DNA from: Bugula neritina | Taxonomy: Eukaryota; Bryozoa; Gymnolaemata; Cheilostomatida; Bugulidae | DNA length: 23,224 bases | Direction of reading: 5' to 3' | NCBI GenBank assembly: GCA_964035545.1 | Contig: CAXIUT010000191.1 | Location: 1 to 23,224, forward strand | Shown: positions 1 to 23,224 of the stretch, piece by piece | Numbering within the stretch: position 1 is the first letter of the stretch | How the letters are laid out: the number at the start of each line of letters is the position of its first letter | The notes under the pieces: model-generated | What the model was told of the DNA's origin: nothing | Seen by the model: only the letters and a program-made list of their open reading frames with translations | The model's database searches: none | Position numbers and translations under genes: made by a program

Positions 1-423
1 CGAGGCTGGCTAAAATCTGTTCGTACGAATACGCAATCTTGCAACGTACGAAACGCTGCCAGTATGCGCAAAATTATCGAGGTGTCAAAACGAGCTGCTT
101 CACTCGTTCTTCACATAAAGCCGATGTGTGGTCTGATGGCTTAAATTTGTGTGAAGATTTGCGGGTGAAAAAGAAAAACAGGTGTCGGGTTAGATACGGT
201 AGCCGCGTTTGAATTTTTGCTGCGCGAGGTGTGCCAGAGCATCTACGGCTTGGCCTTCATCTGCGTGGTAGCTGGTCTTGAGTTTGCCACCAGAGCCGAT
301 ACGTCCCCATTCGCGAACGAGGGTCGCGCCTCCAAAGAGATCGCGCTGCACGGTCATCAAATAGAAGCGGCGCATCTTGTGTATAGGGTCGATCCGGCGC
401 AGCTTAATGCGGCTTGGAAAAAC
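1..423. repeat. Terminal direct repeat, left copy
   Basis: This stretch recurs at 22800-23224 in the same orientation. From about position 34 on the copies are nearly identical, differing by single-base length changes: T3 against T4 near 157, A5 against A6 near 175, and one missing G near 369. The first 33 bases differ more and resemble the opposite arm of the inverted repeat at 22765-22835. A direct overlap of contig ends is what an unclosed circular assembly gives. It is not an inverted terminal repeat of a linear replicon. The copy contains the complete WGR gene. Confidence 0.88.
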
Positions 424-7922: not shown

Positions 7923-9009
7923 AACCGCGACTCCTGTTGGCTTCAGGATAGGGCGATCACCGCAGTTCCACCATCATCTTTTCACGGAAGACTTCGGCTG
8001 GTGTTTTCCATCCGAGGCATTTGCGGGGCGTGTTGTTGAGCCGATCACAGATCTCTTTCATGTCTTGATCGGTCATTGACCTGATATCTCGCTTTCGCGG
8101 AAGCCACCGTCTTGCTCGGCGATTTGTGTTCTCCACCGTACCTTTTTGCCAAGGCGAAGAGGGGTCGCAGAACCATGTTTGCGTCCCAATCTCCGCTTGA
8201 AGATGCGGCCAGTTCATAAATTCAGAGCCTCGATCAAAGGTGATCGATCTGCGTGCCTGGTGGGGGAGGTCTTTGATGGCTTTGATGATCTTACCCATCA
8301 CAGGCTTCGTTCGCTTGTTGGGGTTCTTCAGGATCACAGTGAAGCGGCTCACGCGTTCAACCAACGATGTAACATTGCTCTGGCCAAGCTTCTGTTCAAA
8401 CAGCATTAAATCTCCCTCCCAGTGCCCAAACTCTCGTCGGTGGGCAACATCATCTGGTCGGAATAAGATACTGACGTCACGATGGAATTTGGGAGGATGC
8501 TTTTTACGCGCACGGCGTGGCCTTCGCGCGACACGATGCGTTGGCAAGTACCACCAAAGTTCATCACGCAGGCCTTCTTTGGAATAGATGTGACGATAAA
8601 TCGTTTCTTGGCAAACTCGCACTGGGGCGTTTTCATGGATCATCCGATTACCAATCTGCTCTGGCGTCCAGCCATTTTTCAGCCGCTCAATCACACGCTT
8701 GCACAGTTCTGGATATTTGATCAGCTTACGATCTCGCGCACGACGATCTGCACTCATTCGATGCGCCGCATCACCGTAATAACCATCGCATTTCGGCATG
8801 CTCTCATCGCTGAAGAAATTCCTCTTCAGTTCTCTGAAAATCGTTGATCTGCAGCGCTTCAAAACACGCGCCATCTCATCAACAGGGACTTTGGCATGTC
8901 TCCAGCGTTCAATCTTACGTCGTTCTATGATACTCAGTTGCGTATAAACGGCTCCCATACCGATTCCTCTCGTCAGATAACATGTTGTTTTCTAACAAGA
9001 GTCGCAGTT
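7923..9009 (-). mobile_element. IS30-family insertion sequence
   Basis: The element is about 1.09 kb and contains one transposase. Its ends are imperfect inverted repeats: AACCGCGACTCCTGTTGG reads inward from 7923, and AACTGCGACTCTTGTTAG reads inward from 9009 on the other strand, with three mismatches in 18 positions. IS30 elements duplicate 2-3 bases of target; I see no clear duplication, which may mean a later rearrangement or slightly misplaced ends. The left end interrupts the CDF transporter gene. Confidence 0.85.
7957..8958 (-). CDS. IS30-family transposase
   Basis: The 333-residue protein is of normal length for IS30 transposases. An N-terminal helix-turn-helix (LSIIERRKIERWR, then EMARVLKRCRSTIFRELKRN) recognises the inverted repeats. 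The DDE catalytic core follows: GHWEGDLM near residue 178-185 gives the first Asp, FDRGSEFMNW near 240-249 the second, and KGTVENTNRRARRWLPR near 274-290 the Glu. The C-terminus NTPRKCLGWKTPAEVF is characteristic of the family. The frame is intact, so the element may still be active. Confidence 0.96.
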   Translation of the reverse strand: MGAVYTQLSIIERRKIERWRHAKVPVDEMARVLKRCRSTIFRELKRNFFSDESMPKCDGYYGDAAHRMSADRRARDRKLIKYPELCKRVIERLKNGWTPEQIGNRMIHENAPVRVCQETIYRHIYSKEGLRDELWWYLPTHRVARRPRRARKKHPPKFHRDVSILFRPDDVAHRREFGHWEGDLMLFEQKLGQSNVTSLVERVSRFTVILKNPNKRTKPVMGKIIKAIKDLPHQARRSITFDRGSEFMNWPHLQAEIGTQTWFCDPSSPWQKGTVENTNRRARRWLPRKRDIRSMTDQDMKEICDRLNNTPRKCLGWKTPAEVFREKMMVELR

Positions 9010-9048: not shown

Positions 9049-9083
9049 AGCCCTTATATGTGATGTATAGAATCTTAAGGGCT
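9049..9083. terminator. Hairpin at the 3' end of the recombinase gene
   Basis: AGCCCTTA at 9049-9056 pairs with TAAGGGCT at 9076-9083 around a 19-base loop; the right arm overlaps the recombinase stop codon. It could end the leftward recombinase transcript, but no T-run follows. The left part, CGCGCATAA at 9041-9049, also looks like the XerC half of a dif-type site, so a recombination site is an alternative reading. Confidence 0.35.
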
Positions 9084-9621
9084 AACCCCACATCCCCACA
9101 AACTGCTTCTCGTTATACTTGGCATATATAGCTGTGTTGGTGATTGACACATGACCAAGGTAAATCTGCACAGCCCGAATATCAAAACCGTTGTTGATCA
9201 TATAAAAACCACAGCCATGACGCAGCATGTGCGGGTTTACGCGGGGCAGGGCAGCGTCTTTGCTGCACTGCTCAAGGATCTTGTTGACAGAGCTCCGCGC
9301 AAAAGGCGTTCCGCGCTCTGAGACAAAGAGCCAGGGAAGTTCAGAAACCCGTTCACGCAAATACCGCCTGAGAAGCCTTAGCTCATCTCCGGCCATCGGG
9401 TGCATTCCATCGATGCCGTTTTTGTTACGCTTCACGAAGAGGGTAGACTGCTCCAGGTTCAACTGTTCAAGTTGAATACTACACAGCTCAGACACGCGTA
9501 GCCCGTGACGGTAGAGCATCAACACGACCAGCTCGTTACGAGCTGGGTTTCTGGTCTTTCGTGCTGCCTTGCGTAGGGCCTCGACCTCACTGGCAGTGAC
9601 CCAGTTTTTGACGGTGTTCAT
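9082..9621 (-). CDS. Short FimB-type tyrosine recombinase
   Basis: The 179-residue protein is only a tyrosine-recombinase catalytic domain, like FimB/FimE (about 200 residues), without the core-binding N-terminal domain of phage integrases or Xer proteins. The catalytic set is complete: Arg in YRHGLRVSELC at about 43, Lys in VKRNKNG at about 67, HMLRH near 131-135, LGHVS near 150-154, and the nucleophile Tyr in IYAKY near 161-165. On plasmids such enzymes resolve multimers or invert small switches. It starts at an ATG at 9621. The right end of the IS30 element lies 73 bases beyond its stop. Confidence 0.88.
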   Translation of the reverse strand: MNTVKNWVTASEVEALRKAARKTRNPARNELVVLMLYRHGLRVSELCSIQLEQLNLEQSTLFVKRNKNGIDGMHPMAGDELRLLRRYLRERVSELPWLFVSERGTPFARSSVNKILEQCSKDAALPRVNPHMLRHGCGFYMINNGFDIRAVQIYLGHVSITNTAIYAKYNEKQFVGMWG

Positions 9622-10420: not shown

Positions 10421-11365
10421 TTAGTCAGCTAGGAAGATGGTGCTCACAAGCCCATTGTCACCGCGAGCTATGCCTGTGCCCGCGACTTCATCAGGAATTT
10501 TGTTTCCTGCATCGTATCCATGGAAATTACCACCAGACTGCTGAACGGTATTCGGTCCAGTGAGATCTACGGGCGCACCTCCGTTCGTGGTTGCTATGTT
10601 GCCGCCCGTGAATGAACTGCCAGAAATACCCATTCCAGTAATTTGGATCATGTCTACAGGTGATGCGACAACACTACCTGTAGCTTGATCCCGCGCTGTG
10701 AAGTTTGAAACGGTTACATCTACATTTCCATTAAGAAAATCTGCCGTGACGCTGCTTTGACCATTCTCCAAGTCTAAGCCAAGAGTATTGGTGGCAATAA
10801 CACCAGACGCTTCTCCAGTATATGTTCCACCACCTTTATTCGGCATATCAGCCGACGACGTTGCAATTCCATAGACGCCGGAAACATCGTAGTTTGTGCC
10901 ACCAGCAGAGTATGTTTGTGTGTACTTCTGCACGTACTCATATGATCCGGTTGTGCTAAGTGTCAGAACCGATGAACCATCAGTGAGACGTCTATTCGCG
11001 TCTGGGCCGTCAGAATCCACGAGTGAATATGTTCCGTCATTAAACGATGTATTTCCTGAGTTGTGAACAAGCGATCCGGTTGGGCGTACCACAAGAATTT
11101 GGCCTGAAGAATTATTTGTCTGAAATGCTGATCCTGCCAGCGCGCTTGTAGAAGCGTTAGTGCTTGACAGTGTTTGGTAGTTTGGCGTCACGGTTCCTGC
11201 GGTTCCTGCGGTTCCTGCGGTTCCTGCGGTTCCTGCGGTTCCTGCGGTTCCTGTGGGTGGTGGAGTTGTCATCTCTGGCAAATTACAGCAAGGAGTTGGT
11301 CCGGTGGCAATCAATGTGCCAATGCAAGCAACGGCTACGGTTACTTTGTACAGAAGCAGTTTCAT
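10421..11365 (-). CDS. TbpB-like beta-barrel surface protein
   Basis: The 314-residue protein begins with a signal-peptide-like stretch (MKLLLYKVTVAVACIGTLIA). Cysteines at 14 and 28-29 could be lipidated, although no lipobox is perfect. A flexible linker of GTA repeats follows (about residues 38-58), then a beta-strand-rich domain to the end. The end, DEVAGTGIARGDNGLVSTIFLAD, resembles the closing strands of transferrin-binding-protein-B-like barrels (GG.F.G..A.EvgGvF). Such proteins are outer-membrane-anchored binders, often exported by Slam proteins; the ligand here is unknown. Its ATG overlaps the stop of the VanZ-like gene by four bases, so it is the last member of the effector operon. 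Confidence 0.65.
   Translation of the reverse strand: MKLLLYKVTVAVACIGTLIATGPTPCCNLPEMTTPPPTGTAGTAGTAGTAGTAGTAGTVTPNYQTLSSTNASTSALAGSAFQTNNSSGQILVVRPTGSLVHNSGNTSFNDGTYSLVDSDGPDANRRLTDGSSVLTLSTTGSYEYVQKYTQTYSAGGTNYDVSGVYGIATSSADMPNKGGGTYTGEASGVIATNTLGLDLENGQSSVTADFLNGNVDVTVSNFTARDQATGSVVASPVDMIQITGMGISGSSFTGGNIATTNGGAPVDLTGPNTVQQSGGNFHGYDAGNKIPDEVAGTGIARGDNGLVSTIFLAD
11192..11254 (-). repeat. 9-bp tandem repeat encoding GTA linker
   Basis: GGTTCCTGC is repeated six times exactly from 11192 to 11245, with a seventh copy changed at its last base (11246-11254). On the coding strand it gives repeated Ala-Gly-Thr. The unit is a multiple of three, so slippage would change linker length without breaking the frame. 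Confidence 0.95.
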
Positions 11366-11760
11366 ACAGATATCCTAAAATTAACAAAACTCATTGCGGC
11401 TCCTATGAGCACGCCGATCAAACCCAAGAAAAGATCCATCCAATCAAACGTGCCAAAATTCGAATAGTTACTGATAGCGTCTGGGGTAATGCTATCCAAC
11501 CGCCCCTTCATTTCAGGATGTTGTGATACTTCGAACAAAGTAACGATTAGTCCTACTAAAGCTCCTGAAAAGGTTACATCTTTTACGCCTCTATATGGAT
11601 AAGCTAGCAGGTATGTAAAAAAGAGAGCGTGCGAGAATGCTGGTAAGGACTGCAACAATAACCCTTCACTGACACCCAACCACGCGCGGATTGGATATAT
11701 TGCGCTTCCCATCAAAAACATACAAACAGCAAGTGTTGCCAGAGCTATCTTTACGTTCAT
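11362..11760 (-). CDS. VanZ-like small membrane protein
   Basis: The 132-residue protein has four likely membrane segments (about residues 5-25, 38-56, 62-80 and 106-126). FSHALFFTYLLAYPYRG and the late SNFGTFDWMDLFLGLIGVLIG are the pattern of VanZ-like proteins (H-x(n)-A-Y and GT.DW.D). VanZ itself gives low-level glycopeptide resistance by an unclear mechanism; most homologues have no known role. Its ATG overlaps the stop of the giant RTX gene, and its stop overlaps the next ATG, both as ATGA. This links it translationally to the surface proteins on either side. Confidence 0.65.
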   Translation of the reverse strand: MNVKIALATLAVCMFLMGSAIYPIRAWLGVSEGLLLQSLPAFSHALFFTYLLAYPYRGVKDVTFSGALVGLIVTLFEVSQHPEMKGRLDSITPDAISNYSNFGTFDWMDLFLGLIGVLIGAAMSFVNFRISV

Positions 11761-14700
11761 AAGAACATGAAGACATCTGCGTCGATCTGACTGGTAGTTA
11801 AGCCATAGAAGAGGATACTTGTGCCTTCTGCGTTGAAGACTGCGCCATCCGCACTGTCGCTCATGAAAGATGTAACATTTGAAGCGTTCACGGTTGTAAA
11901 CTCCAAAAGTCTGAGAGCATCGTCTCCATTTCCAAAATCACTACCCGAAACGACGACGCTATATCCACTTGTGTCGTTGAAAACTACATTCTCTACATTG
12001 AACGTGCCAATGGTATTATCGCCCTCGTTTGGCTTGAAGATAAACGTATCCGCTCCTCGTCCCCCCATAAGGAAATCATTACCTGCCCCCGCAATGAGTA
12101 TGTCCGAGCCTGCGAAAATACCGTTACTTGCTTCACCGCGAATTACATCATTGCCATTTCCACCATCGAGCGTATCAGCTTGAAAACCACCCAATAGAAG
12201 ATCTGAGTCTTCGCCGCCTGACGTGTGATTGATGCCTAGTTTCGACACGATCTTATCGTGTCCTTGCTGTCCTGATACTGTTTGGCTTTGAAGCGAGCTG
12301 ATGATCAAATCATCTGCGGCACTACCATAGACCGTATCAGAATTTTGCTGACCAAGAACACTGAGCACCTCAGAGATGAAGATGTTGTTCGCCTCATCCA
12401 CTTCATCCTCGTCATTATCGCTATCCAGCTGAAGCACGACGCGCCCCGATCCTTCTTGCAGATCAGATGGTGCGAAGAAATTGAGAGTAATGTCTGACTT
12501 TTCATTCCAAAGGAGCGGATTCACTTCCACTTTTCCGAGAAGGACAGAGTCACTGTCGAGTGTTCCGTCGTCAGTCAAGTAGGCGTTGACGGCAATTACT
12601 GATGAGGTTGACCCAATTTCAATATCAAATGGTGAGAAGCTGATGGGTGCATCGCCTCTGTTAAGGGCGCTAAACCCAAAGCTGAAATCTTCCCCTGCGA
12701 CAATCGAAGTCGGGATAGAGGCCTCTCCATCAAACCGAAGATCAGGCTGTGGGCTGTCTTTTACAATGACGTAGTGAGAAACGAGTGAAAGCTGTTCGCT
12801 ATCGTCAGATGAGCGAAGCTCCGTGAGCACGTAGTGCCCGCCAAGAGTACTATCGAGATCGATCTCTACGCGTGATTGGTAGTTCTGGTTTTGGCCTTGA
12901 GTCATTGAAGCAAGAACTGCTGATGTAAGAAGTTTATCTCCTTCATCCAGCTCATCATTTTCAGAAAGGTATGTACGGATAATTTCGCCGCCAGGCGTTA
13001 TAGTTGGGCTGAAGTTCTCATAGCTCACACCAAAATACAAAGTTCCCCCAAGATACGGGAAGTCTTCGCCGCCCCAGCCTGTTGCCCTGATGTCCACGAC
13101 TGGAGCTGGCTGCACAGTTACTGCGTGAGCGGTCTCAACTAGAAGCGCATTATCATCCGCAACAACGCGATAGATGAGGTTTTGGAGCCCTTCTTCATTG
13201 TCTTCGGGCGTATACTGGTAATCTACGCGATGGCTTTCACCGGCTTCTATGACGGGCAAAATGAGTGATATGACCTCACGATCACCCCCATCTTTTGAAC
13301 CATCAGCAGACAGAAAAATTTCTACGCGCTCTGTGCCGCTACTGGCCGCGCCTCCTGAGTTCGTGAATACAACAAACGCGTTTTGCTGCTCTCCTACAGT
13401 GAGATCAACAGTTTCACTGCGACCTTGGTATTCCAAGAAAGCTTCAGTGGGAGGCGCAACATCATCGTTGGTGATCGTAGTGTGAGCTATTGCCTTCAGA
13501 GGATCAATCTTGGCGGTTCCATCTGGCGAGCTTAAGCCGATTGAGAGAACCTCGTCTGGCGCAACTATGTCATCGCCGTCTACTAAAAGTGTTATGGTCC
13601 GGCTGGCTGTGTCGCCATCAGCGAAAGTTACCGATCCTGAACGATTTCCAGCTCCGTCGGTGATAGAGCTACGCCCTGAAAGCACCGACCACTCAACGGT
13701 CTGTGCACCTTGGCTACCTCCTGCACGTGAAATCTCAAACGGAATTTCTGTTTGCTCTCCCGCACTTCCTTCAAAAACTTCTTGGGATTGTTCGGTAATG
13801 CGAATGAGGCCAGCGCCACCTGTTCCAACAAAAACTGAAGCATAAGCAATGTTGTTGCCTTCATCGGCCTCTTCCACAGTTTCAGCATGATCTGCTTTGA
13901 TGCCTATGAAATATTCACCTAGCCCAAATACATACCCATACCAACCTTCGGTTGCTTCAACGGCTCCAGCTTCCAAGCTTGGAAAGTAAGGTTCGATGAA
14001 TACCCTTTCACTCTCATCGAACGTGGTATCGCTCGAGATATACATCGCAACAGAATAAGCACCTGAAGCTGATTGGCCGCGATTGAAGACGTCAAAGTCG
14101 AAATAGAATTCTTCTCCAAGGTCTGGATCTACAGTGGTGATAATGAGGTTTTCTACTGATAGATCTGCGGGTCCAAGATCTTTTGGTACCAGTGTCATCT
14201 GCGCAGAGGCGATATTGTTGGCTTCGTTTGTCTCATCCCAGCGATGAGCAGAATCCACCTCGCCAAAGACGGTGTAGGTGTGACCAGGCTCCAAATCACC
14301 AGTTGTAATGTAAACCGTCGAAGAGTTATTGGCAGATCGAGATCTGTCTGAAACTTCAACGTCATCAGAGTTCCCATAAACATCATCATAGGAAACGGTG
14401 ACCGTTACGCGATGAAGATTGTCTGGCGAGTCTGTTAGGTTTTTGGTTTTGTAGAGTAGAGCGAGTGTCCCACCCTTTTCGGTATCCGTTGCGCCATAAA
14501 GATTGAATGCAGAGAACACGTAGTCTTGCAGTGGAGCAGCGGGGGGAGGGTCTTGAATAGTAAGTTTGCGTCCTGAAGAAATATTGTCCCCTAACTGGGC
14601 CTCGGCTCCAGCGCTGGCTGAATTAGCGCGCGCGAAGAAATAATATTCACTTCCTTGAGCAAATGAACTTGTAATCGAAGCGGGAACAGTGACCGAAACC

Positions 14701-16175
14701 TCTCGTGTGTCACCTCCTGCAATATTGATATCTTGCGACCCAACTACGACTGCATTACTCAATGAAAACGTTGGTGAGCTAGAGTAGTAAAAAGTGGTCT
14801 GCGTCATTCCTGTCGCTTCATCACCATCGTTCTTAATCCGTGCAGTCAGCGTAATAGGGGCGCTTTGTTCGATCAGGCTATTATCTAGCCAGAGATCTAC
14901 AATGCGTTGGTTCGGTGGCGTACTGTCGGGTTCCCCAGGATTTCCGCCTGGATCGGCGGCTTCGGGTTCAATTTGTATGAAAAAGGAAAAGCGATTGTTG
15001 TCTTCATTAGAGCCTTCATCTGTACGATCCTGCACGTCTGCCGCTAGGACCACCTCATAGGTTCCAGGTGTAATATCCTCTGGGATCATGAAGCTTGGCG
15101 AGGTTAGTTGTTGCGCTTCACCTCCACGGAGAATTTTTGTCAAACCAGATTTAAAGCCTGAGCCAATTTCGGATGCAGTACCAAATGCCCAGAACGATAT
15201 GGTCGAGCTAGTCGCACCTTGGTTGACTACTTCGTAGTCGAAAGAAACTTCGTCTCCAGGCTTGAAAACCCGCGAGAATGTTGCGTTCTCTGAAACAGCC
15301 TCGTTTTCAAAAAATACGTTATCGATGATAAGATCGGCGGGGCCCGTATCGGGTGGATCTACAACGACAGGAGGATCGGTTTCATCCTGAGGAAACGAAA
15401 TCTGCAAATCGAACGTTTCACGCTGCGTGATATTCTCGCCTGATACAACGATGTAGTAACCTTGGTCCGGGGTATAGAACCAGTCTACATGCTCATCCTG
15501 TGTTCCAGGGTTTCGAGACTGAATACCTTGGCCCGCAATAGGGCGTCCCTGGTAGTCTAACACTTCTAGATCGAGCTCTCCCGTAAGTCCCAAGAGATCG
15601 ACATTGATTGGGCCGCTACCAGCCGTTTCGATATAAAAAATCCGGTGATACACACCGTCTTCAAGCTCTACGGCGTAGGTCTTATACTGTGAAACAAAGC
15701 TAAGTTCGTCATAGCCCTCATCATTATCAATCGTTCCCGTTGTAGAAAGAGTCGAACCTCCTTGCGCGGAAACAGCACCTTGGATGTCAGAAATCGTTAG
15801 GCTTACCTTATCTCCGTCTTTGTTTTCTGGCCGTCTATCACCTTTGATCGCAACCTTAATCTGCTCCTTGTGATACCCATCCGACAAGCTCTCGAACGGT
15901 ATTGTTACCGTAAGATTATTCAGCTCATGAAAATCATCATCGGTATCATTAGATGTGTTCACAACAAAGGTCACATCTTCGTACGCAACACCTCGAACTT
16001 CGACATCAAAGGTTAGGTAATTTTCACCGTCATAGTCGCCTTCGCTCACGGAAGAACCGTTCAGATAAAGCTTCGGCTTCGGTGCAAGACTGGTGCCACC
16101 GGAGAACTCAACTAAATCGTGATTATCTTCATAAGTTGCTGAAGCATATACTAACTTTACCTCTCGCCCATTCAA
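11757..16175 (-). CDS. Giant RTX protein with Calx-beta and CARDB-type repeats
   Basis: The frame has 1472 residues and no signal peptide. Approximate order: a Calx-beta-like domain (20-155), a PPC-like domain (160-272), four CARDB-type Ig domains (280-785; each with an E.NN or DNN strand such as DEGSNEDNNRFSFF), a Calx-beta domain (795-905, ending TITNDD), three more CARDB-like domains (910-1265), then degenerate and good RTX nonapeptides (DGGNGNDVI, AGAGNDFLMGGRGADTF) near 1330-1385 and a C-terminal region typical of type I secretion substrates. The start is a TTG that overlaps the M23 stop. As the first residues are mid-domain, the real protein probably begins upstream, as the same polypeptide as the M23 frame. 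It likely acts outside the cell in adhesion or effector delivery. No type I exporter is encoded here, so a chromosomal one would be needed. Confidence 0.88.
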   Translation of the reverse strand: MNGREVKLVYASATYEDNHDLVEFSGGTSLAPKPKLYLNGSSVSEGDYDGENYLTFDVEVRGVAYEDVTFVVNTSNDTDDDFHELNNLTVTIPFESLSDGYHKEQIKVAIKGDRRPENKDGDKVSLTISDIQGAVSAQGGSTLSTTGTIDNDEGYDELSFVSQYKTYAVELEDGVYHRIFYIETAGSGPINVDLLGLTGELDLEVLDYQGRPIAGQGIQSRNPGTQDEHVDWFYTPDQGYYIVVSGENITQRETFDLQISFPQDETDPPVVVDPPDTGPADLIIDNVFFENEAVSENATFSRVFKPGDEVSFDYEVVNQGATSSTISFWAFGTASEIGSGFKSGLTKILRGGEAQQLTSPSFMIPEDITPGTYEVVLAADVQDRTDEGSNEDNNRFSFFIQIEPEAADPGGNPGEPDSTPPNQRIVDLWLDNSLIEQSAPITLTARIKNDGDEATGMTQTTFYYSSSPTFSLSNAVVVGSQDINIAGGDTREVSVTVPASITSSFAQGSEYYFFARANSASAGAEAQLGDNISSGRKLTIQDPPPAAPLQDYVFSAFNLYGATDTEKGGTLALLYKTKNLTDSPDNLHRVTVTVSYDDVYGNSDDVEVSDRSRSANNSSTVYITTGDLEPGHTYTVFGEVDSAHRWDETNEANNIASAQMTLVPKDLGPADLSVENLIITTVDPDLGEEFYFDFDVFNRGQSASGAYSVAMYISSDTTFDESERVFIEPYFPSLEAGAVEATEGWYGYVFGLGEYFIGIKADHAETVEEADEGNNIAYASVFVGTGGAGLIRITEQSQEVFEGSAGEQTEIPFEISRAGGSQGAQTVEWSVLSGRSSITDGAGNRSGSVTFADGDTASRTITLLVDGDDIVAPDEVLSIGLSSPDGTAKIDPLKAIAHTTITNDDVAPPTEAFLEYQGRSETVDLTVGEQQNAFVVFTNSGGAASSGTERVEIFLSADGSKDGGDREVISLILPVIEAGESHRVDYQYTPEDNEEGLQNLIYRVVADDNALLVETAHAVTVQPAPVVDIRATGWGGEDFPYLGGTLYFGVSYENFSPTITPGGEIIRTYLSENDELDEGDKLLTSAVLASMTQGQNQNYQSRVEIDLDSTLGGHYVLTELRSSDDSEQLSLVSHYVIVKDSPQPDLRFDGEASIPTSIVAGEDFSFGFSALNRGDAPISFSPFDIEIGSTSSVIAVNAYLTDDGTLDSDSVLLGKVEVNPLLWNEKSDITLNFFAPSDLQEGSGRVVLQLDSDNDEDEVDEANNIFISEVLSVLGQQNSDTVYGSAADDLIISSLQSQTVSGQQGHDKIVSKLGINHTSGGEDSDLLLGGFQADTLDGGNGNDVIRGEASNGIFAGSDILIAGAGNDFLMGGRGADTFIFKPNEGDNTIGTFNVENVVFNDTSGYSVVVSGSDFGNGDDALRLLEFTTVNASNVTSFMSDSADGAVFNAEGTSILFYGLTTSQIDADVFMFL

Positions 16176-16993
16176 CTTATCGATCCTTCCTCGAGTTTTG
16201 TACCGACCTGGAAGTGAAGATGTGCGCCACCTGTTACCCCTGATAGGCCAATCGTTCCGATTGCTTGCCCTTTTTGAACAAAGTCACCAATTTTAACTCC
16301 ACTATTATCGACTGAATTTTGTCCCAAATGTAGATACGAAGCGTAAAATTTCCGACCATCATCTGACACATGCAGGACTGTTATCCAGTTACCGAACTTA
16401 CCTGGGCCTTTGTCTGAATTAACACTGTTGTCAGTGCTTTGGGCGTCATCAAAATAGCCAACAACTAACCCATCGGCGGCGGCACGAACCGTCGTCCCAA
16501 CGGGTTGCGCAAAATCCCAAGCAGCGTCATCGTGTATCGTTGGTGTATCACCAATGTGACCGCTTGGCCCCTGAGATGTAATCTGTGGGTTCGCGACTTC
16601 GGAGCCGAAAGGGTAGTCAACCACAATCGGTGTCGTAGGATCATTCGCAACGTTGCCTAAAACAAAAATATCATCAAAAAAAACAACTCTTTGAATATTT
16701 TCTATTTGAGCAACTGTGGATCGATCTTCATGCTCTAAAGTTGGATATTCAAGGAACTCTCCAATACTGTACTTTTCCGAATTATCCTTAACAATTAGAG
16801 TGTTCGTGCCACCTACGCCATCAAATATTTTAAAGCTAGAACCCAAATAGAAAACATTGTCTGAGTTATCGCCATCAGAGTTCAACGTGTCTTTTATAAT
16901 TTCAAATTCACCATTCGAAAATGAGATTTCTTCCCATTCACCGCTTAGCTCAGGTCTAAAATAGCTGTTTACGTTAGAAATTCCATCAAACAA
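16172..16993 (-). CDS. M23 (LytM) peptidase domain segment
   Basis: The frame encodes 273 residues. Residues 1-120 are unassigned and end VFFDDIFVLGNVAND, a pattern like RTX-linked spacer repeats. Residues 125-265 form an M23/LytM zinc endopeptidase: HDDAAWDF near 153-160 supplies the first zinc His and Asp, a YLHLGQ stretch follows near 222-227, and the HLHFQV motif near 259-264 supplies the HxH pair. M23 enzymes cut peptide cross-bridges of peptidoglycan. There is no signal peptide, and the start (TTG) is not convincing. The frame runs into the AHH frame upstream and the RTX frame downstream with one-base offsets, so it is probably the middle of one long gene. Confidence 0.8.
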   Translation of the reverse strand: MFDGISNVNSYFRPELSGEWEEISFSNGEFEIIKDTLNSDGDNSDNVFYLGSSFKIFDGVGGTNTLIVKDNSEKYSIGEFLEYPTLEHEDRSTVAQIENIQRVVFFDDIFVLGNVANDPTTPIVVDYPFGSEVANPQITSQGPSGHIGDTPTIHDDAAWDFAQPVGTTVRAAADGLVVGYFDDAQSTDNSVNSDKGPGKFGNWITVLHVSDDGRKFYASYLHLGQNSVDNSGVKIGDFVQKGQAIGTIGLSGVTGGAHLHFQVGTKLEEGSIS

Positions 16994-17016
16994 ATTTTTG
17001 AAAATGCCCTCTGTTT

Positions 17017-18030
17017 TTACCCTACTTTTCCTTCAAAGTTTTCCGTCAACCAGCCATCAACGAAATTCAAACTAGCTGATATCGCGCCAATTGCATCACT
17101 GTCGGGAAAAGCAATATCTGCAAGATCGACAGAAGATTTTAGAAATTCATAATTTTCATATAATTCGTATATAGAATAAGCTATTGCGAACGGCCCACCA
17201 ATAGCACGAGCAAGTAAACCCGCCCCTACTTCAAGAGCGGACACCCCCAAAAAAGAGGTCAGCGCATTCGCGTCAATATCCAAATTAGAATTTTCGACAA
17301 ACTGGCGCAACTCATTAGCAGTGAGTTCTTCTTTCTTTACAATATCTGCAGCTAATTTACCAAGAGACGCGACACTTAAACCAATCGCAGCAGCACCAAC
17401 TGTTCCAGAAGATTTATCTAAATCAAATCCGGAATGTATCTTTGCCTTTATGTCAGGATCAATATTGTGAAATGTTTGCCCAGACGTGATTTTAGAAAAA
17501 TTATCACTATCCAGATATTTGGAAAAAGGTTTTCCAATCTTTTTGAAATTTGGATCAGTAGTAACCAAGTACAAATTTGGGAGTTCTTTTACTTCATCAA
17601 ATATCTTAAAGTGATCAAAATCAATAGAAGGCGCTAAAGCCTGCTTTACACCTCTCAACTCTCCAATCAAATTAGATTTTGCTTGTGCTGGAGTAAGCCC
17701 CTCGGCGTCCATCTTTACTTGAACACCCAAGATATATGATCGCAAGAAAATAGTGTATTCAGGTGAGTGACTACCATGCTTTGCTAGCGAGTATTGACCC
17801 TTCTCAATACCTAGCAACGCGTCTTCTATAGGTAACGGAACTCCATTATATTCAGAATCAAAATCAAAATCGATCTTATCGAGAAAGCTTATGATATCTT
17901 CATCATAGTATAAGCTCGTAGGGTCTTTTAAGCTTTGAGGGATAACATGGTGGGCTTGCCACTTACCCAGCTTGAGAAGCTCGCTATCAGAATATGAATT
18001 CTCAAGTGATTTTCGCAAAGCATCGGCCAC
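17017..18030 (-). CDS. AHH-family nuclease (polymorphic toxin) domain protein
   Basis: The frame encodes 337 residues. Residues 24-31 (WQAHHVIP) carry the AHH motif, NGVPLP follows near 62-67, and KHGSHSPEY near 84-92 completes the HNH/EndoVII-type AHH domain (about 20-105). These domains are predicted nucleases of bacterial polymorphic toxins. The rest is unassigned apart from a small-residue hydrophobic segment at about 210-290 that might insert in a membrane. The start is a GTG at 18030 with GGAG seven bases upstream, inside the end of the preceding immunity-like gene. The toxin domain is thus N-terminal, the reverse of most polymorphic toxins. The stop at 17017 lies next to a GGG run, where one missing base would join it to the M23 frame. 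Confidence 0.8.
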   Translation of the reverse strand: MADALRKSLENSYSDSELLKLGKWQAHHVIPQSLKDPTSLYYDEDIISFLDKIDFDFDSEYNGVPLPIEDALLGIEKGQYSLAKHGSHSPEYTIFLRSYILGVQVKMDAEGLTPAQAKSNLIGELRGVKQALAPSIDFDHFKIFDEVKELPNLYLVTTDPNFKKIGKPFSKYLDSDNFSKITSGQTFHNIDPDIKAKIHSGFDLDKSSGTVGAAAIGLSVASLGKLAADIVKKEELTANELRQFVENSNLDIDANALTSFLGVSALEVGAGLLARAIGGPFAIAYSIYELYENYEFLKSSVDLADIAFPDSDAIGAISASLNFVDGWLTENFEGKVG

Positions 18031-18031
18031 A

Positions 18032-18653
18032 TTAAATCTCCACGCATTTATTTACTAACAGACATTGAATTGCCGTTTCATTTAGTATTTCGAATAAATT
18101 GTCGGAAATATACAGCATGTCCCTACCCAGTACCGTTGAGTCCATCCAAATATCAAAACTTGATATCTTTGATTTGTGAACGGATAGCGGTATATTCAAA
18201 TTGTTATGATCAATTTTTCCATAAACTTTCCCATCGACACTTTGGCATTCCACAAAACGATCTCTGCACTCATTAGAAATCGCCTTCACAAACTTTTCAA
18301 TTCTTATCAAAAAATATTCTGAATTCTGACGCACTTTTACTATCAAGTACACTTGAATAAATGGGCACCAAGTCAACTTTGTTTTTTGCATTTTTTAATA
18401 GAAAATTCGCCACAATATCGTCACAAAACCAATAGTGACCACGTCCAAAAAAATTTGGCAACCACTCCTGTGTCGAGAACTTCACTTTTACTTCGTAGCG
18501 ATCTAATTTGGGAAATTCACCAAGAAATATGGAGCGGCGTGATTCTGTGCTAAAAAATTCCTTCGGGCAATCAACTATCTCGACCCACGCCTTTTCACCC
18601 AGCGGATATAGATCAAAGGATCTTGGAATTGTATGGGAAATTTGCTTTGTCAT
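18032..18653 (-). pseudogene. Probable immunity protein (Imm11/DUF1629-like), one frameshift
   Basis: Two overlapping frames make one gene of about 206 codons: residues from 18653 to about 18310, then a second frame to the stop at 18032. The change of frame falls on an A6 run at 18309-18314, where one base too many would explain it. The C-terminal part, SSFDIWMDSTVLGRD then LYISDNLFEILN, has the pattern of DUF1629/Imm11-type immunity proteins (D.W ... SD.L...L). It lies one base before the AHH start and shares its ribosome-binding region. This fits an immunity gene guarding against the encoded nuclease. The broken frame is likely a sequencing slip but could be real. Confidence 0.6.
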
Positions 18654-18739: not shown

Positions 18740-19484
18740 TTAAGAAAACCCGTATGCATTTATCACTTCAATAAATTCTACCTGCGATCCACCAACATCA
18801 GGATGGTTCTTTTTAACCTTGCGTCTATACGCTGCCTTTAACTCATCAGGGCTATAGCTCCTTGACGGATCAAGTCCCAAAATCATCAAGCAACGCGTTC
18901 TTTCATCTTCAGCAGGCGATGGATTCTTTGCAGCACTTCCTCGACCTTTTTGAGGATTGGTAGCGGCTCTGTTCTTTCGTGTCACCCGCTTTGTCCCTTT
19001 TATCTTGAGTCGCCTTAGCCTTCCGCCGAAACCCTCTAGCCTCATCCTGCCAACCAGCACGGGCACTCTGCCTCTGTTCTTGCGGCTTATACGCTTGGCG
19101 CCGCGTTTCCTCTCTCAGCTCATGTTCCCGCTCTTCCAGTTCTTGCTCACGCCTACGGATGTCCTCAAACGCGCTGCGATACCGAAACGCATAGATCAAA
19201 TCTCCGAGGTTCCCCGCCCATGCCAGCGCTGAGAAAAAAAGTCCCCACATGCGCCACGCCCAACACGAAAATGCCGCCCAGGATGGGGCCCAGCATCGCG
19301 GACGGGTTCGTAGAGAAACAGACCAAAATAAAGAATGAGCAGGATTTTCCACCAGGACAGGCGCTTGGTGAGCTTGCCTAGATATTTGCCAGCGAGGAAT
19401 AGAACTATCAGCAGAAACAGAAACGCCGGATTGAATAGAGCTGTCAGGGCAAGGCGCCTGAAGATCCTCAAAGTAGTCTATCAT
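18740..19484 (-). pseudogene. Membrane protein with C-terminal J domain, frameshifted
   Basis: Coding signal passes through several frames. After the ATG at 19484 there are three membrane segments in two frames (PAFLFLLIVLFLAGKYLG, WWKILLILYFGLFL, and a third near 19235-19300). A charged coiled coil comes next (FEDIRRREQELEEREHELRE), then a J domain at 18745-18910 with LMILGLDPSRSYSPDELKAAY and the HPD tripeptide in KKNHPDVGG. J domains stimulate Hsp70 ATPase; a membrane-anchored J protein next to a coupling protein may assist relaxase unfolding or transfer. At least three frame changes are needed. It overlaps the end of the coupling protein gene by a few bases. Confidence 0.7.
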
Positions 19485-20942
19485 TGCAGCGGCACCCTTT
19501 GATTTTCGCTGCGCCTTGCTGTTTACTGAGATGCGCTGCGCCGTAGCGTTTCGGAACGCGGGACAACTTGCGGTGCTGGAAATAGGGTGTGGTTTCAATA
19601 ATTGCAGGGTTTTTGTTTGCACTGACCAAAAGCGCCTGCGTGTCTCCCATTCTTCGGATCGCATCAGCGTTGAGCAGATTGTACTCGTGCCGCTGCTGCG
19701 TGATGTCTTCGATCTTATCCCCTTCGAACCTCGATGACCTTTCCGGCTATGGCCTCAAAGAAACGCGCCGTCTCTTGGTCTGAGCCGCTATAGGCAAGAT
19801 AGGTGGTAAAGCCGCCTTGGATGCTCTGCGCGTAGTCTCGACCATAACGGGCAGAAAGCTGGCTCAGGGATTGCAGCACAATCGATAGGCTCACTTTGTA
19901 ACCCCTGATCGTGTTCGCCACGGATACGAAGGACGGTATCGTGGAGTGACCAAATTCATCATAGAGAATGTAGAGCGGAAGTGTAGATTTCGTGGGCATC
20001 TTTCGCATTGAAGCGTTGAACACGCTGCGGAAAAACACGCTCGTCCAAAATCCATAATATTCAGCCAAATGCGGCGGCGTTATAAAAAACACAGCCGTCT
20101 TTTCATGGCGGATGGATTCCAGGCTGAAGCTGCTACTGGCGGTCAGCTCGATCAAGTTCTTGTTGGTGAAGGCTTTCAGGGCCGTCAGCGCTGTAAGAGC
20201 GAAGCTCTGCACCGCGTTTGGGTTTCCCGTCACGGCTCCCTTCCATTCTTCCCACAGGCTTGAATCCTCTGGGTTGCTCGGATTGTAGGCCCACTTGATT
20301 ACAAAGTCGTCCAGGGGTGAGCCGTCCTGCCCAAAATTCTGAAGGCAGTGATACAAATTCCCCAGGGTGTAATAACTGGGGTCACTGTATCCTGCGCGCT
20401 GCAAAAGTTTGAGGCAAGATAGAGATCATGCGCGTTGCGCCGTGTTCCAAAACTCATCCTTGGAACTACCTGACCCCTGCTTTGATAAGAATTTCCGCAA
20501 TCTGCTCGATTTCAATATCGTCCTTGGCTTCAAGCAGAGGATTGAAGTTTGAGCTGCTGGCAAGATCTTCAGGATTTATCGCAATGACCTTGAAGCCACG
20601 TGATTGCAGATAGCCTGAAGTTTCCGCGAACACCTCGCCTTGGGGTCATTCACCACAATGGAGCAGTTTCGTTTCGCGCGATCCAAAACCGACGGTATAA
20701 TATACCGACTGGTTTTCCCCGCTCCCACGCGGGCAATGACCGCTACGTTTTGAAAACTCTCACGCTCAGGACAGCCGGCCTTCATTACCATCCATGAGCA
20801 GGCCTGTGTTGCGTGAAGAAAGCAGGGTGCTGGTTTCTGAACCTGTGAGCATACGCGCGCCGCCTTGTCGCTTCAGGAACTTCCCAAAGAGTAGGGCATA
20901 TCCCGCGTTCTTACTCAACTCACTCAAAAATCTTCCCAGCAC
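19468..20942 (-). pseudogene. VirD4/TraG-type coupling protein, frameshifted
   Basis: The gene would encode about 490 residues. Walker A is near 20715-20745 (VIARVGAGKTSRY). VVNDPK follows with its conserved continuation in another frame, then LYILYDEFGHS near 19945-19975 gives Walker B, and SIVLQSLSQL near 19868-19897 gives motif III. The C-terminal part (HEYNLLNADAIRRMGDTQAL) lies in yet another frame. Frame changes occur near 20770-20780 (one extra C), 20640, 20410-20490 and 19720. The GTG at 20942 follows GAGAGG and overlaps the end of mobA. Coupling proteins hand the relaxase-DNA complex to a type IV channel. The N-terminus appears short, without a clear membrane anchor. Confidence 0.82.
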
Positions 20943-22264
20943 CTTCAGCCTCTCTCAGATGTTCACGTGTCTTGCCATGTTGTTTGGTTTTTAGATGCTT
21001 GAGTAAATGCAGATAACGGTTCTGGATGCCTCGCAAGCTTGCCTGAGTGGCAAGGCGCACGGTGGCGGTCAGCTCGCGCAGGATGGCTTGGACGCTCTGA
21101 CCTCACCTGCTGCGTCCACCTTTGCTCTGTCCATCCTTGCCTGTAATCGTGCGGGCTACTTCGTCCTTGGTTTCTCTCAGCTCATCCATACTGCGTTTCC
21201 AAGCATTCTGGATAGGTGAGAGGCCTTCGCCTTGCTCTTCAGTTCGACCATCTTCGGATTTTACTCCAGAAGGATCAGGAACGACGCGTTCCCCCTCATC
21301 CACGATCTGTACCTTCTGCGGTTCTCCTGGCGCACTTCCCATATCTCGCTCCTGTGTTTGCTCTTCTTGCGTACCATCTGGCGCTTTGCGCTGCGTATCA
21401 TGCTCGGTCTCACGACTTCGCTTCCCAGCGTCTTTTTCTTTTTCACCCGCAGCCTTTTTCTCAGCTCAACGCTTCTCTCATCCTGACGTTCAACATCTAC
21501 CCCAGAGAGCCGGATTTCGATCTGATCGGCCACCTGCAAATCCAGCGTCTTCAGGCGATGCTTTTTGCCTGTCTCCAGATCCACCACGCCGACGGTCTTC
21601 CCTCGAACATAGAGGTCGAGGCCCTCATGGCCGAGCGCTGCGAGAAGGCTGTCACGGTCTTCGCTGGCCTCATAAGCGCTGCCGATACGCTGCAAGATGT
21701 CTTCACGCTTCGGACGCTGCCCTGTGCGGCGTTCTAGCTCGGCTTCCCTCTTGCCGCGTCCACGCTCTGAGCGTTTTCCAATCGCGAGTTTCTGTTCCAG
21801 CTCAGGGTAGTCTGAAGCACGTGCGCTTCGAGCTTCACTTGGATGTCTCGAAACTGGTGTTTGGTGAGACGCTGGCGTTTCACCTCGCCTGAGCGATTGG
21901 CAGAGATCATCAGGTGCATATGGTAGGAATGATCCTTGTCCTGGTGCAGGCCACCATAGACCAGATTGTCCGGGCAACGCGCCGCGATGTATTCACGCGC
22001 GATCTCATGCAGGCGCTCTTTCTGCTCTTGCGCGCTGAGGCCCTTGCGCGGGTTATCGAGATGATTTCGTGAAACAGGTAGGTGCCGTTTTTGCGTTTCT
22101 GCAATAAACTCCGCATTGCGCTCATACTCATCTCTGATGCTGCGGTGGTCACGTCCTAGCAGATTGTGCCGCAGCGTGAATTCTTCCTGCCCCTCTTCGC
22201 GGTCAATATACTCCAAGAGCTGACCAAAGCTTGGCACCTTGCGGCTCATGGATTTGATTATCAT
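20924..22264 (-). pseudogene. mobA: MobA-type relaxase, frameshifted
   Basis: The N-terminal 150 residues are in one frame from the ATG at 22264. They form a relaxase/mobilization nuclease domain, with GGLHQDKDHSYHMHLMIS near 102-119 giving the three-histidine metal motif. The frame changes near 21815, continues with the segment rich in EKQ/R (ELEQKLAIGKRSERGRGKRE), and changes again near 21460. A TGA at 21103-21105 then interrupts the frame, which stays open to 20924. The true end is therefore either 21103 or 20924; the coupling gene starting at 20942 favours the latter. The start overlaps the mobC stop as ATGA. MobA nicks oriT and stays bound to the transferred strand. Whether it is active depends on whether the breaks are real. 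Confidence 0.82.
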
Positions 22265-22674
22265 GCAGAGCCGCCTGGTGGTTTAGGTTTTGCGTGCTGC
22301 TTCGCTGCGGCGATGGCCTTTTTCAGCTCAGCTTCCAGAGACTGGATGTAGAGAAAGGGCGTGCGTGTCATCGAGGACCTGCCGGACGCGATTGGAGTGG
22401 TGCGCCATCTGATTCACGTTGTTTTGCAATATTGCGAACCGTGCGGGTCCAGGTCAGCAAGCTGCTCAAGCAGATCTTCTGGCACAGAGGCTTCGAGCTG
22501 GCCTTGATGGGCCTGTAGGGCGCGGCGTTTAACATGGGCGGAAAGGCTCTCTCCAGAAGCCTGGCCGCGCGTGACAAAGTCACGATGTTCAGCCACGCTC
22601 AAAGTAAGGTTCACGCGTTTCGCCTGAGCCTTGTTGCTTTGTCGGTATTCTCTCTGGTAGCTCTGTCTATCCAT
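22261..22674 (-). pseudogene. mobC: MobC-like accessory mobilization protein, frameshifted
   Basis: Starts at an ATG at 22674 with AAGG seven bases upstream. The first 80 residues are basic, then form a ribbon-helix-helix-like module (KRVNLTLSVAEHRDFVTRGQ, then ESLSAHVKRRALQAH). The frame changes at about 22430-22440, and probably again near 22370. The remaining helical part ends KAIAAAKQHAKPKPPGG in the frame that stops at 22261, overlapping mobA by four bases. MobC-type proteins bind next to nic and help MobA open oriT. The naming rests on position and fold, not on a search. Confidence 0.72.
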
Positions 22675-22675
22675 T

Positions 22676-22836
22676 GGGCCTTAGGGCGATTAGGGTTCAA
22701 AGGGAAATGCGCCTGAGCAGTCTTTCCCTTGTCTGGGGTGCAGGGGTGAAAAACCCCCTGCCAAGATGCGTATTCGCGAACAGATTTTAGCCAGCAACGC
22801 GAGGCTCAAAAATCTTGTTCGTTACGAATATGCAAT
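22676..22836. other. Candidate oriT with three hairpins
   Basis: The intergenic DNA directly upstream of mobC holds AAGGGAAA/TTTCCCTT (22700-22707 and 22723-22730), GCAGGGG/CCCCTGC (22740-22746 and 22755-22761), and a long imperfect inverted repeat (22765-22792 with 22803-22835, arms about 28-33). AAATGCGCC at 22705-22713 in the first loop resembles the nic core of IncQ-type plasmids (TAAGTGCGCC), suggesting but not proving the nick site. Position next to mobC-mobA supports an oriT. Base quality is doubtful here, because the two terminal copies disagree most in this stretch. Confidence 0.5.
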
Positions 22837-23224
22837 CTTGCAACGTACGAAACGCTGCCAGTATGCGCAAAATTATCGAGGTGTCAAAACGAGCTGCTTC
22901 ACTCGTTCTTCACATAAAGCCGATGTGTGGTCTGATGGCTTAAATTTGTGTGAAGATTTTGCGGGTGAAAAAGAAAAAACAGGTGTCGGGTTAGATACGG
23001 TAGCCGCGTTTGAATTTTTGCTGCGCGAGGTGTGCCAGAGCATCTACGGCTTGGCCTTCATCTGCGTGGTAGCTGGTCTTGAGTTTGCCACCAGAGCCGA
23101 TACGTCCCCATTCGCGAACGAGGGTCGCGCCTCCAAAGAGATCGCGCTGCACGGTCATCAAATAGAAGCGCGCATCTTGTGTATAGGGTCGATCCGGCGC
23201 AGCTTAATGCGGCTTGGAAAAAAC
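22800..23224. repeat. Terminal direct repeat, right copy
   Basis: This copy matches 1-423 in the same direction (offset 22799 rising to 22801 after two extra homopolymer bases). It ends in the middle of the WGR gene with an extra A in the final run. It represents the same locus read twice. Confidence 0.88.
22991..23224 (-). pseudogene. Partial second copy of the WGR gene
   Basis: The C-terminal part of the WGR gene at 190-471 reappears here and is cut by the contig end. One G is missing in the GCGGCGC stretch near 23170, which shifts the frame. As it belongs to the terminal redundancy, it should not be counted as a second gene. Confidence 0.85.

What the first reader, a model, noticed from the sequence alone, without database searches (positions are those of the whole stretch)
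11757..18653. Possible type I secreted polymorphic toxin with N-terminal AHH nuclease and upstream immunity gene
Seen: immunity-like gene, AHH frame, M23 frame and RTX frame follow each other on the minus strand with no real intergenic space. At each of the two junctions (16172-16175 and near 17017-17023) one extra base would fuse the frames, and neither the M23 nor the RTX frame has a convincing start. Known: AHH domains are polymorphic-toxin nucleases, usually C-terminal with immunity downstream; RTX repeats mark type I substrates whose signal is C-terminal. Inference: with a C-terminal export signal the toxin must sit N-terminally and immunity upstream, which is exactly the arrangement here. 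An AHH-M23-Calx-beta/CARDB-RTX protein of about 2090 residues on a small plasmid would be an unusual contact-dependent or secreted antagonism system.
Basis: partly seen in the sequence, partly recalled or inferred. Interest (0 to 1): 0.87.

Follow-up and report, generated by a model that had tools for sequence, protein, structure and literature searches.

The report
Bacterial nuclease toxin, RTX export tail
A small plasmid, probably of a marine bacterium, seems to carry a large exported weapon against other bacteria, with a DNA-cutting part at its front, an export tail at its end and a possible protection gene just before it, broken into pieces most likely by sequencing errors.

Summary
On the minus strand, 18653-11757, lie an unidentified upstream gene, a frame starting with an AHH nuclease, an M23 peptidase frame and a CARDB/RTX frame. 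The upstream gene is broken too.

The breaks are best read as assembly errors. The contig is a circular plasmid whose two end copies of the same ~420 bp differ by 6 indel events, and a gene kept in one frame in a related plasmid alternates frames here.

The AHH start is credible (GTG, GGAG 7 nt upstream) and the published AHH motif residues are present. A 37% GC island covers the upstream gene, the AHH frame and about 112 residues of the M23 frame. Because it ends inside the M23 frame, nuclease and M23 frames look like one unit: a cassette joined to a 48% GC M23-CARDB-RTX body, the mirror image of ordinary polymorphic toxins.

Not shown: immunity (no Imm11/Imm43 match), a type I exporter (none recognised on the plasmid; host chromosome apparently absent), or any relative with this architecture. 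Precedents exist: an N-terminal GHH nuclease with a C-terminal T4SS signal, and RTX proteins whose N-termini resemble a bacterial toxin.

The parts
18297..18653 (-). upstream gene, front frame (118 aa); candidate immunity gene
   Evidence: ORF; no Pfam match; one chance-level NCBIfam match
18032..18391 (-). upstream gene, rear frame (119 aa); overlaps the front frame
   Evidence: ORF; only DUF7757 at 15 bits, below its cut-off of 27; no homologue
17017..18030 (-). AHH nuclease frame (337 aa), GTG start with GGAG 7 nt upstream; AHH domain at residues 22-111
   Evidence: Pfam AHH 29.6 bits, cut-off 22.3; motif residues; start read
16172..16993 (-). M23 peptidase frame (273 aa), domain at residues 158-264
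   Evidence: Pfam 56.1 bits; HDDAAWDF at 154 and HLHF at 258
11757..16175 (-). CARDB repeats and C-terminal RTX block (1472 aa)
   Evidence: CARDB 98.1 bits, HemolysinCabind 50.4 bits
16657..18816 (-). AT-rich island (GC about 0.37) holding the upstream gene, the AHH frame and the front of the M23 frame; proposed 5' cassette
   Evidence: change points
11362..11760 (-). 132-aa hydrophobic protein, start overlaps the RTX stop by 4 nt; possible operon partner
   Evidence: ORF; no plasmid match
10421..11365 (-). 314-aa protein, start overlaps the previous stop by 4 nt; weak TbpB_B_D match
   Evidence: 17.5 bits, cut-off 26; no plasmid match

Best explanation
A plasmid-borne antibacterial toxin gene, probably of a Roseobacter-group bacterium, split on paper by indel errors of the assembly. 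One protein of roughly 2080 residues would carry, in order, an AHH (HNH/EndoVII-type) nuclease, a linker, an M23 peptidoglycan peptidase, CARDB repeats and a short RTX block with a type I export signal at the extreme C-terminus. A small gene directly upstream would encode the immunity protein, made first because the nuclease is the first part of the toxin translated. Proposed working (inferred): a type I exporter encoded elsewhere in the host secretes the chain, the RTX block folds on calcium outside, the CARDB repeats act as stalk or adhesin, M23 opens the target's wall, and the nuclease enters and cuts nucleic acid. Shown: domains, order, motif residues, a credible AHH start, frame overlaps, assembly error, composition island. 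Inferred: single chain, export route, delivery, immunity, target.
For: AHH, M23, CARDB and RTX matches above cut-offs. All published Tox-AHH residues present. GTG start with GGAG 7 nt upstream, 1 nt after the upstream gene's stop. Overlapping open frames at all three breaks. Contig ends: 6 gap events and 2 mismatches in 426 columns of one repeated stretch. Coupling-protein homologue is one open frame of at least 578 codons in L003 but alternates frames in the window. AT-rich island ends inside the M23 frame: log-likelihood ratio 32.8 against at most 9.4 in 300 shuffles and 4.5-8.3 in five other, overlapping plasmid windows. Precedents: PMC6759196, PMC11253643.
Against: No relative of the AHH frame in any collection searched. 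0 of 71 RTX-frame matches list AHH or M23. The upstream gene shows no similarity to Imm11/Imm43 beyond shuffles, no Pfam immunity match and no homologue. No exporter recognised in 29 of 54 listed plasmid frames scanned with Pfam; the only HlyD match in the assembly is weak. The RTX frame has a possible start of its own and is unbroken over 4.4 kb. In the relaxase it is the related plasmid, not the window, that changes frame, so real decay also occurs in such plasmids.
Confidence: 0.6

Rival explanations
1. The locus is truly broken: a decaying toxin and upstream gene on a plasmid, with real frameshifts.
For: Three breaks in two neighbouring genes; the related Sulfitobacter plasmid also shows a frame change in its relaxase.
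Against: The same contig disagrees with itself by 6 gap events where it can be checked; the AHH motif residues and M23 motifs are kept; the 4.4-kb RTX frame is open.
Confidence: 0.2
2. Three separate genes in one operon: a small AHH nuclease with its immunity gene, an M23 peptidase, and an RTX surface protein.
For: TTG at 16175 has GGAAGG 9 nt upstream; standalone AHH genes with immunity genes are common on plasmids, 4 of 4 seen.
Against: M23 frame has no good start and no evident signal peptide (by eye) although M23 enzymes work outside the cytoplasm; open frames overlap at each junction; the composition boundary lies inside the M23 frame, not at a gene border.
Confidence: 0.12
3. The chain is real but its target is the eukaryote whose assembly holds the plasmid, or it is a surface protein, and the upstream gene is not immunity.
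For: The contig lies in a 215.8-Mb assembly; the upstream gene matches no immunity family; RTX protein FrpC, which binds FrpD, becomes linked to epithelial membrane proteins in vitro (PMC6759196 passages).
Against: M23 families act on peptidoglycan; AHH domains are listed as polymorphic-toxin nucleases with immunity partners (PMC3482391 passages); a small gene coupled directly upstream fits immunity.
Confidence: 0.08
4. Programmed ribosomal frameshifting joins the frames.
For: Two canonical slippery heptamers lie in phase in the upstream gene's overlap.
Against: None lies in phase in the two toxin overlaps; those in the upstream gene do not give the observed phase change (by hand).
Confidence: 0.02

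Closest known systems
Effector 20845 (taken to be TfdA of the title) of Stenotrophomonas maltophilia, T4SS (PMC11253643; passages)
   Same: N-terminal [AG]HH nuclease, large middle region, C-terminal export signal, cognate immunity protein
   Different: Export by T4SS (XVIPCD signal), 899 aa, no M23, CARDB or RTX reported in the passages seen
Smlt3024-like RTX proteins and FrpC/FrpD (PMC6759196; passages and section 9)
   Same: N-terminal domain resembling a bacterial toxin, RTX or related repeats behind it (all but 6 of 221 proteins), a partner protein that binds the N-terminal part
   Different: Different N-terminal domain, not AHH; no M23 mentioned in the part seen
Polymorphic toxins with Tox-AHH tips (PMC3482391; passages and section 41)
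   Same: AHH nuclease beside a putative immunity gene, cassette-like composition
   Different: There toxin tip is C-terminal and immunity downstream; routes listed for Tox-AHH are T2SS, T5SS, T6SS, T7SS and TcdB/TcaC, not type I
Plasmid-borne RTX bacteriocins of rhizobia and others (PMC3034196; passages)
   Same: Plasmid gene, RTX repeats, proposed action on other bacteria
   Different: Mechanism unknown there; no AHH or M23 named in the passages seen
Cdz system of Caulobacter (PMC5380434; passages)
   Same: Contact-dependent killing through a type I system in an alphaproteobacterium, with an immunity protein
   Different: Small glycine-zipper peptides, exporter genes in the cluster, no nuclease

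Membership tests
Tox-AHH nuclease | Pfam AHH score above the curated cut-off | tested here: met
   29.6 bits, cut-off 22.3
Tox-AHH nuclease | [AG]HH, N, H, H, Y residues (PMC3482391) | tested here: met
   A26-H28, N62, H85, H88, Y92; H27, H28, N62, H88 and Y92 invariant with four plasmid AHH proteins, H85 placed by eye
Tox-AHH nuclease | nuclease activity | not testable with these tools
   no experiment
Polymorphic toxin system | toxin tip at the C-terminus with immunity downstream (TI order) | tested here: not met
   AHH is at the start of its frame; candidate gene upstream
Polymorphic toxin system | adjacent gene is an immunity gene | tested here: inconclusive
   position fits; no family match, no homologue, profile scores at shuffle level: 50 of 200 and 172 of 200 shuffles reach them
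Polymorphic toxin system | same body with different tips in relatives | tested here: inconclusive
   no relative of the whole body found; only composition supports a cassette
RTX protein exported by type I secretion | calcium-binding nonapeptide repeats near the C-terminus | tested here: met
   HemolysinCabind 50.4 bits, best stretch 1355-1377 of 1472
RTX protein exported by type I secretion | cognate exporter in the producer | tested here: inconclusive
   none recognised on the plasmid (29 of 54 frames scanned with Pfam); assembly lacks DnaA and has one sub-cut-off HlyD match; exporter ATPase search unanswered
M23 peptidase | family score and metal-site motifs | tested here: met
   56.1 bits; HDDAAWDF and HLHF; 10 solved sequences matched
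Imm11 / Imm43 immunity protein | family score for the upstream gene | tested here: not met
   no match with either half searched apart; shuffles

The most novel reading that the evidence does not exclude
A class of type I-exported polymorphic toxins built in mirror image: a constant M23-CARDB-RTX body at the 3' end receives exchangeable 5' cassettes of immunity gene plus N-terminal toxin, so that one recombination at the front of the gene swaps both weapon and protection.
Probability: 0.3. Interest if true: 0.75.

Novelty: new variant of a known kind. Interest (0 to 1): 0.52.

Why it matters
Polymorphic toxins are thought to diversify because toxin tip and immunity gene sit together at the 3' end (PMC3482391 section 41). 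A C-terminal export signal rules that out. This locus shows what the mirror solution would look like, with a measurable cassette boundary, and would pair a wall-cutting peptidase with a nuclease in one exported chain. It would add type I export to the routes that paper lists for AHH nucleases, and would bear on the N-terminal regions of RTX proteins for which PMC6759196 says no functional information was available.

Tried and rejected
Imm11/Imm43 identity of the upstream gene: suggested to me by eye and by four AHH neighbours on other plasmids, but not supported by Pfam, by a four-sequence profile against 200 shuffles of each piece (ten other window pieces scored 9.5-13.6, the two halves 13.6 and 9.9) or by solved structures (best E 0.36, unrelated names). 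Structure of the AHH frame: the single-sequence model had mean pLDDT 36.6, so no fold search was run. Programmed frameshifting: above. A codon-usage frame model, trained on plasmid genes richer in GC, called the AT-rich island noncoding; I take this as composition, and note that its coding signal resumes at 16661 and changes frame near 16256. PADLOC gave nothing for five frames, Rfam nothing at gathering scores. The 132-aa and 314-aa frames had no plasmid match. The 16S search of the assembly gave 8 matches on C6, C65 and C196 with 5 of 998 candidates scored; I could not assign any to the plasmid's host. Seven literature searches returned 5, 1, 2, 4, 18, 1 and 4 papers; five papers were looked into (see Closest known systems), the rest seen as listings only. 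I found no paper describing AHH with RTX in one chain in these searches.

Full report
What the window is. It is contig C182 of a 215.8-Mb, 295-contig assembly, a size that suggests a eukaryote with accompanying bacteria (inference). The contig is a circular plasmid: bases 1-422 and 22800-23222 are the same DNA. Its Rep protein is closest, at 49-50% identity, to those of Octadecabacter, Sulfitobacter and another Rhodobacteraceae plasmid, and parts of its backbone resemble Sulfitobacter sp. S223 plasmid unnamed2. The carrier is most likely a Roseobacter-group bacterium (inference).

The finding. On the minus strand, read from 18653 down to 11757, come two overlapping frames of an upstream gene, the AHH frame (337 aa), the M23 frame (273 aa) and the CARDB/RTX frame (1472 aa). 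Pfam gives AHH 29.6 bits (cut-off 22.3), M23 56.1 (28.7), CARDB 98.1 over 5 stretches, HemolysinCabind 50.4, and PPC 22.4, below its cut-off of 25.9. The published Tox-AHH residues, [AG]HH, N, H, H, Y (PMC3482391, passages), are present at 26-28, 62, 85, 88 and 92. The open frame holding AHH is 344 codons long. Its GTG has GGAG 7 nt upstream and lies 1 nt after the upstream gene's stop.

Why the breaks are probably errors. At all three breaks the open frames overlap: about 95 nt in the upstream gene, 14 nt between AHH and M23, 110 nt between M23 and RTX. The contig gives its own error measure: its two copies of one stretch differ in 426 aligned columns by 2 mismatches and 6 gap events, mostly length differences of short single-base runs. 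A second control is the coupling protein of mobilisation. In the Sulfitobacter plasmid the region is one open frame of at least 578 codons, not annotated as a gene and running off the record's start; its counterpart at 20942-19700 of the window alternates between two frames. Another contig of the assembly that looks bacterial by its genes, C285, has frames of 265 to 555 aa intact in the 9.9 kb read. Against this: the 4.4-kb RTX frame is unbroken, and in the relaxase it is the Sulfitobacter plasmid that changes frame while the window keeps one. Genuine decay is therefore not excluded. Programmed frameshifting is unlikely: no canonical slippery heptamer lies in phase in the two toxin overlaps, although two do in the upstream gene's overlap.

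A cassette. The stretch 18653-11757 has one strong composition change, at 16657: GC 0.374 before, 0.480 after, log-likelihood ratio 32.8 against at most 9.4 in 300 shuffles. Single-base shuffles ignore codon structure, so stretches of real sequence were used as well: the RTX frame alone gives 1.9, the AT-rich part alone 1.8, and five other, mutually overlapping 6.9-kb plasmid windows give 4.5-8.3; a sixth, which contains the boundary, gives 31.9. The other edge of the island lies near 18816 (ratio 49.3). The boundary at 16657 falls inside the M23 frame, near residue 112, before the peptidase domain (158-264); third-position GC rises there from 0.277 to 0.41. The upstream gene, the nuclease and the front of the M23 frame thus share one composition, and are joined in frame to a different body. 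In ordinary polymorphic toxins a 3' cassette of toxin tip plus downstream immunity gene is exchanged (PMC3482391 section 41). Here the same logic would run at the 5' end. This is inference from composition: no second locus with the same body and another tip was found.

Relatives. The AHH frame has no relative by phmmer (7966 candidates, none at E <= 0.001), in genome contigs, viral contigs or plasmids; the collections may leave out the window's own genome and near kin. The RTX frame has 71 protein matches among 7999 scored candidates; 0 of 71 list AHH or M23 among their Pfam domains, and the widest coverages (60-66%) come from CARDB-containing proteins at 23-24% identity. In plasmids 94 records match it, none over 80% of the query. 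The M23 frame found one weak genome locus among 83 stretches and 80 plasmid records at below 60% identity, mostly actinobacterial M23 peptidases. At a loose limit of E 10 the AHH domain alone matched five plasmid records, three of them annotated as AHH proteins. Those three loci hold four AHH genes, and in all four the next gene downstream matches Imm11 or Imm43. The window has the reverse order.

The upstream gene. Its position suits an immunity gene, but neither half matches an immunity family and the rear half shares too few words with any protein to be scored. A profile of the four Imm11/Imm43 proteins scores the halves no better than shuffles (50 of 200 and 172 of 200 shuffles reach the score). 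The DUF7757 match (15 bits, cut-off 27) is not evidence.

Export. RTX repeats lie near the C-terminus. The last residues, acidic followed by hydrophobic, resemble type I signals of some secreted proteases (recalled, not tested). No exporter was recognised in the 29 of 54 listed plasmid frames scanned with Pfam. The assembly has one weak HlyD match, 25 bits against a cut-off of 208.65, beside a permease that I read as RND efflux. No DnaA match was found although 13 of 14 control genomes ring, so the host chromosome seems to be missing. The exporter ATPase search did not complete.

Precedents. In Stenotrophomonas maltophilia T4SS effectors the signal is C-terminal, the partner gene lies upstream, and the figure legend names an AHH domain (PMC6759196, passages). 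Effector 20845 has an N-terminal GHH nuclease whose two histidines are needed for toxicity and DNA loss, and a cognate immunity protein (PMC11253643, passages). Toxin Smlt3024 resembles 221 larger proteins, all but one through their N-terminal regions and all but six with RTX or related domains, from genera that include Leisingera and Halocynthiibacter (section 9); its immunity protein resembles FrpD, which binds the N-terminal part of RTX protein FrpC. Plasmid-borne RTX bacteriocins are known, mechanism uncharacterised (PMC3034196, passages). So the logic has precedents; an AHH nuclease on an RTX chain with M23 was not found in the seven searches made.

Downstream. Two more genes follow with 4-nt overlaps: a 132-aa hydrophobic protein and a 314-aa protein with a weak TbpB-type match. 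They may be operon partners, for instance for anchoring or a second protection, but only position supports this.

Verdict. A probable new variant of antibacterial polymorphic toxin, one chain by the best evidence, with immunity and export inferred. Confidence 0.6.

Noticed in passing
window 1-422 and 22800-23222: Terminal redundancy of a circular plasmid; the two copies differ by 6 gap events and 2 mismatches, a direct measure of assembly error.
   Followed up: yes
window 18740-22674: DnaJ-like, coupling-protein and relaxase regions related to Sulfitobacter sp. S223 plasmid unnamed2 (L003); the coupling-protein region changes frame repeatedly in the window.
   Followed up: partly
L003 2429-2884: In the Sulfitobacter plasmid the relaxase region changes frame relative to the window and is annotated only in part.
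   Followed up: no
L015 and L017 (C285 of the assembly, 26.9 kb): A second contig that looks bacterial, with an efflux adaptor and permease and intact long frames, apparently from another bacterium.
   Followed up: partly
window 10421-11760: Two small genes translationally coupled behind the RTX frame, one hydrophobic, one with a tandem GTA repeat stretch and a weak TbpB-type barrel match.
   Followed up: partly
window 22762-22795 and 5-41: Inverted repeat of about 35 bp at the contig ends, perhaps an assembly artefact.
   Followed up: no
window 7957-8958 and 9082-9621: A transposase-like frame (HTH_38 plus rve) and a phage-integrase family frame on the same plasmid.
   Followed up: no
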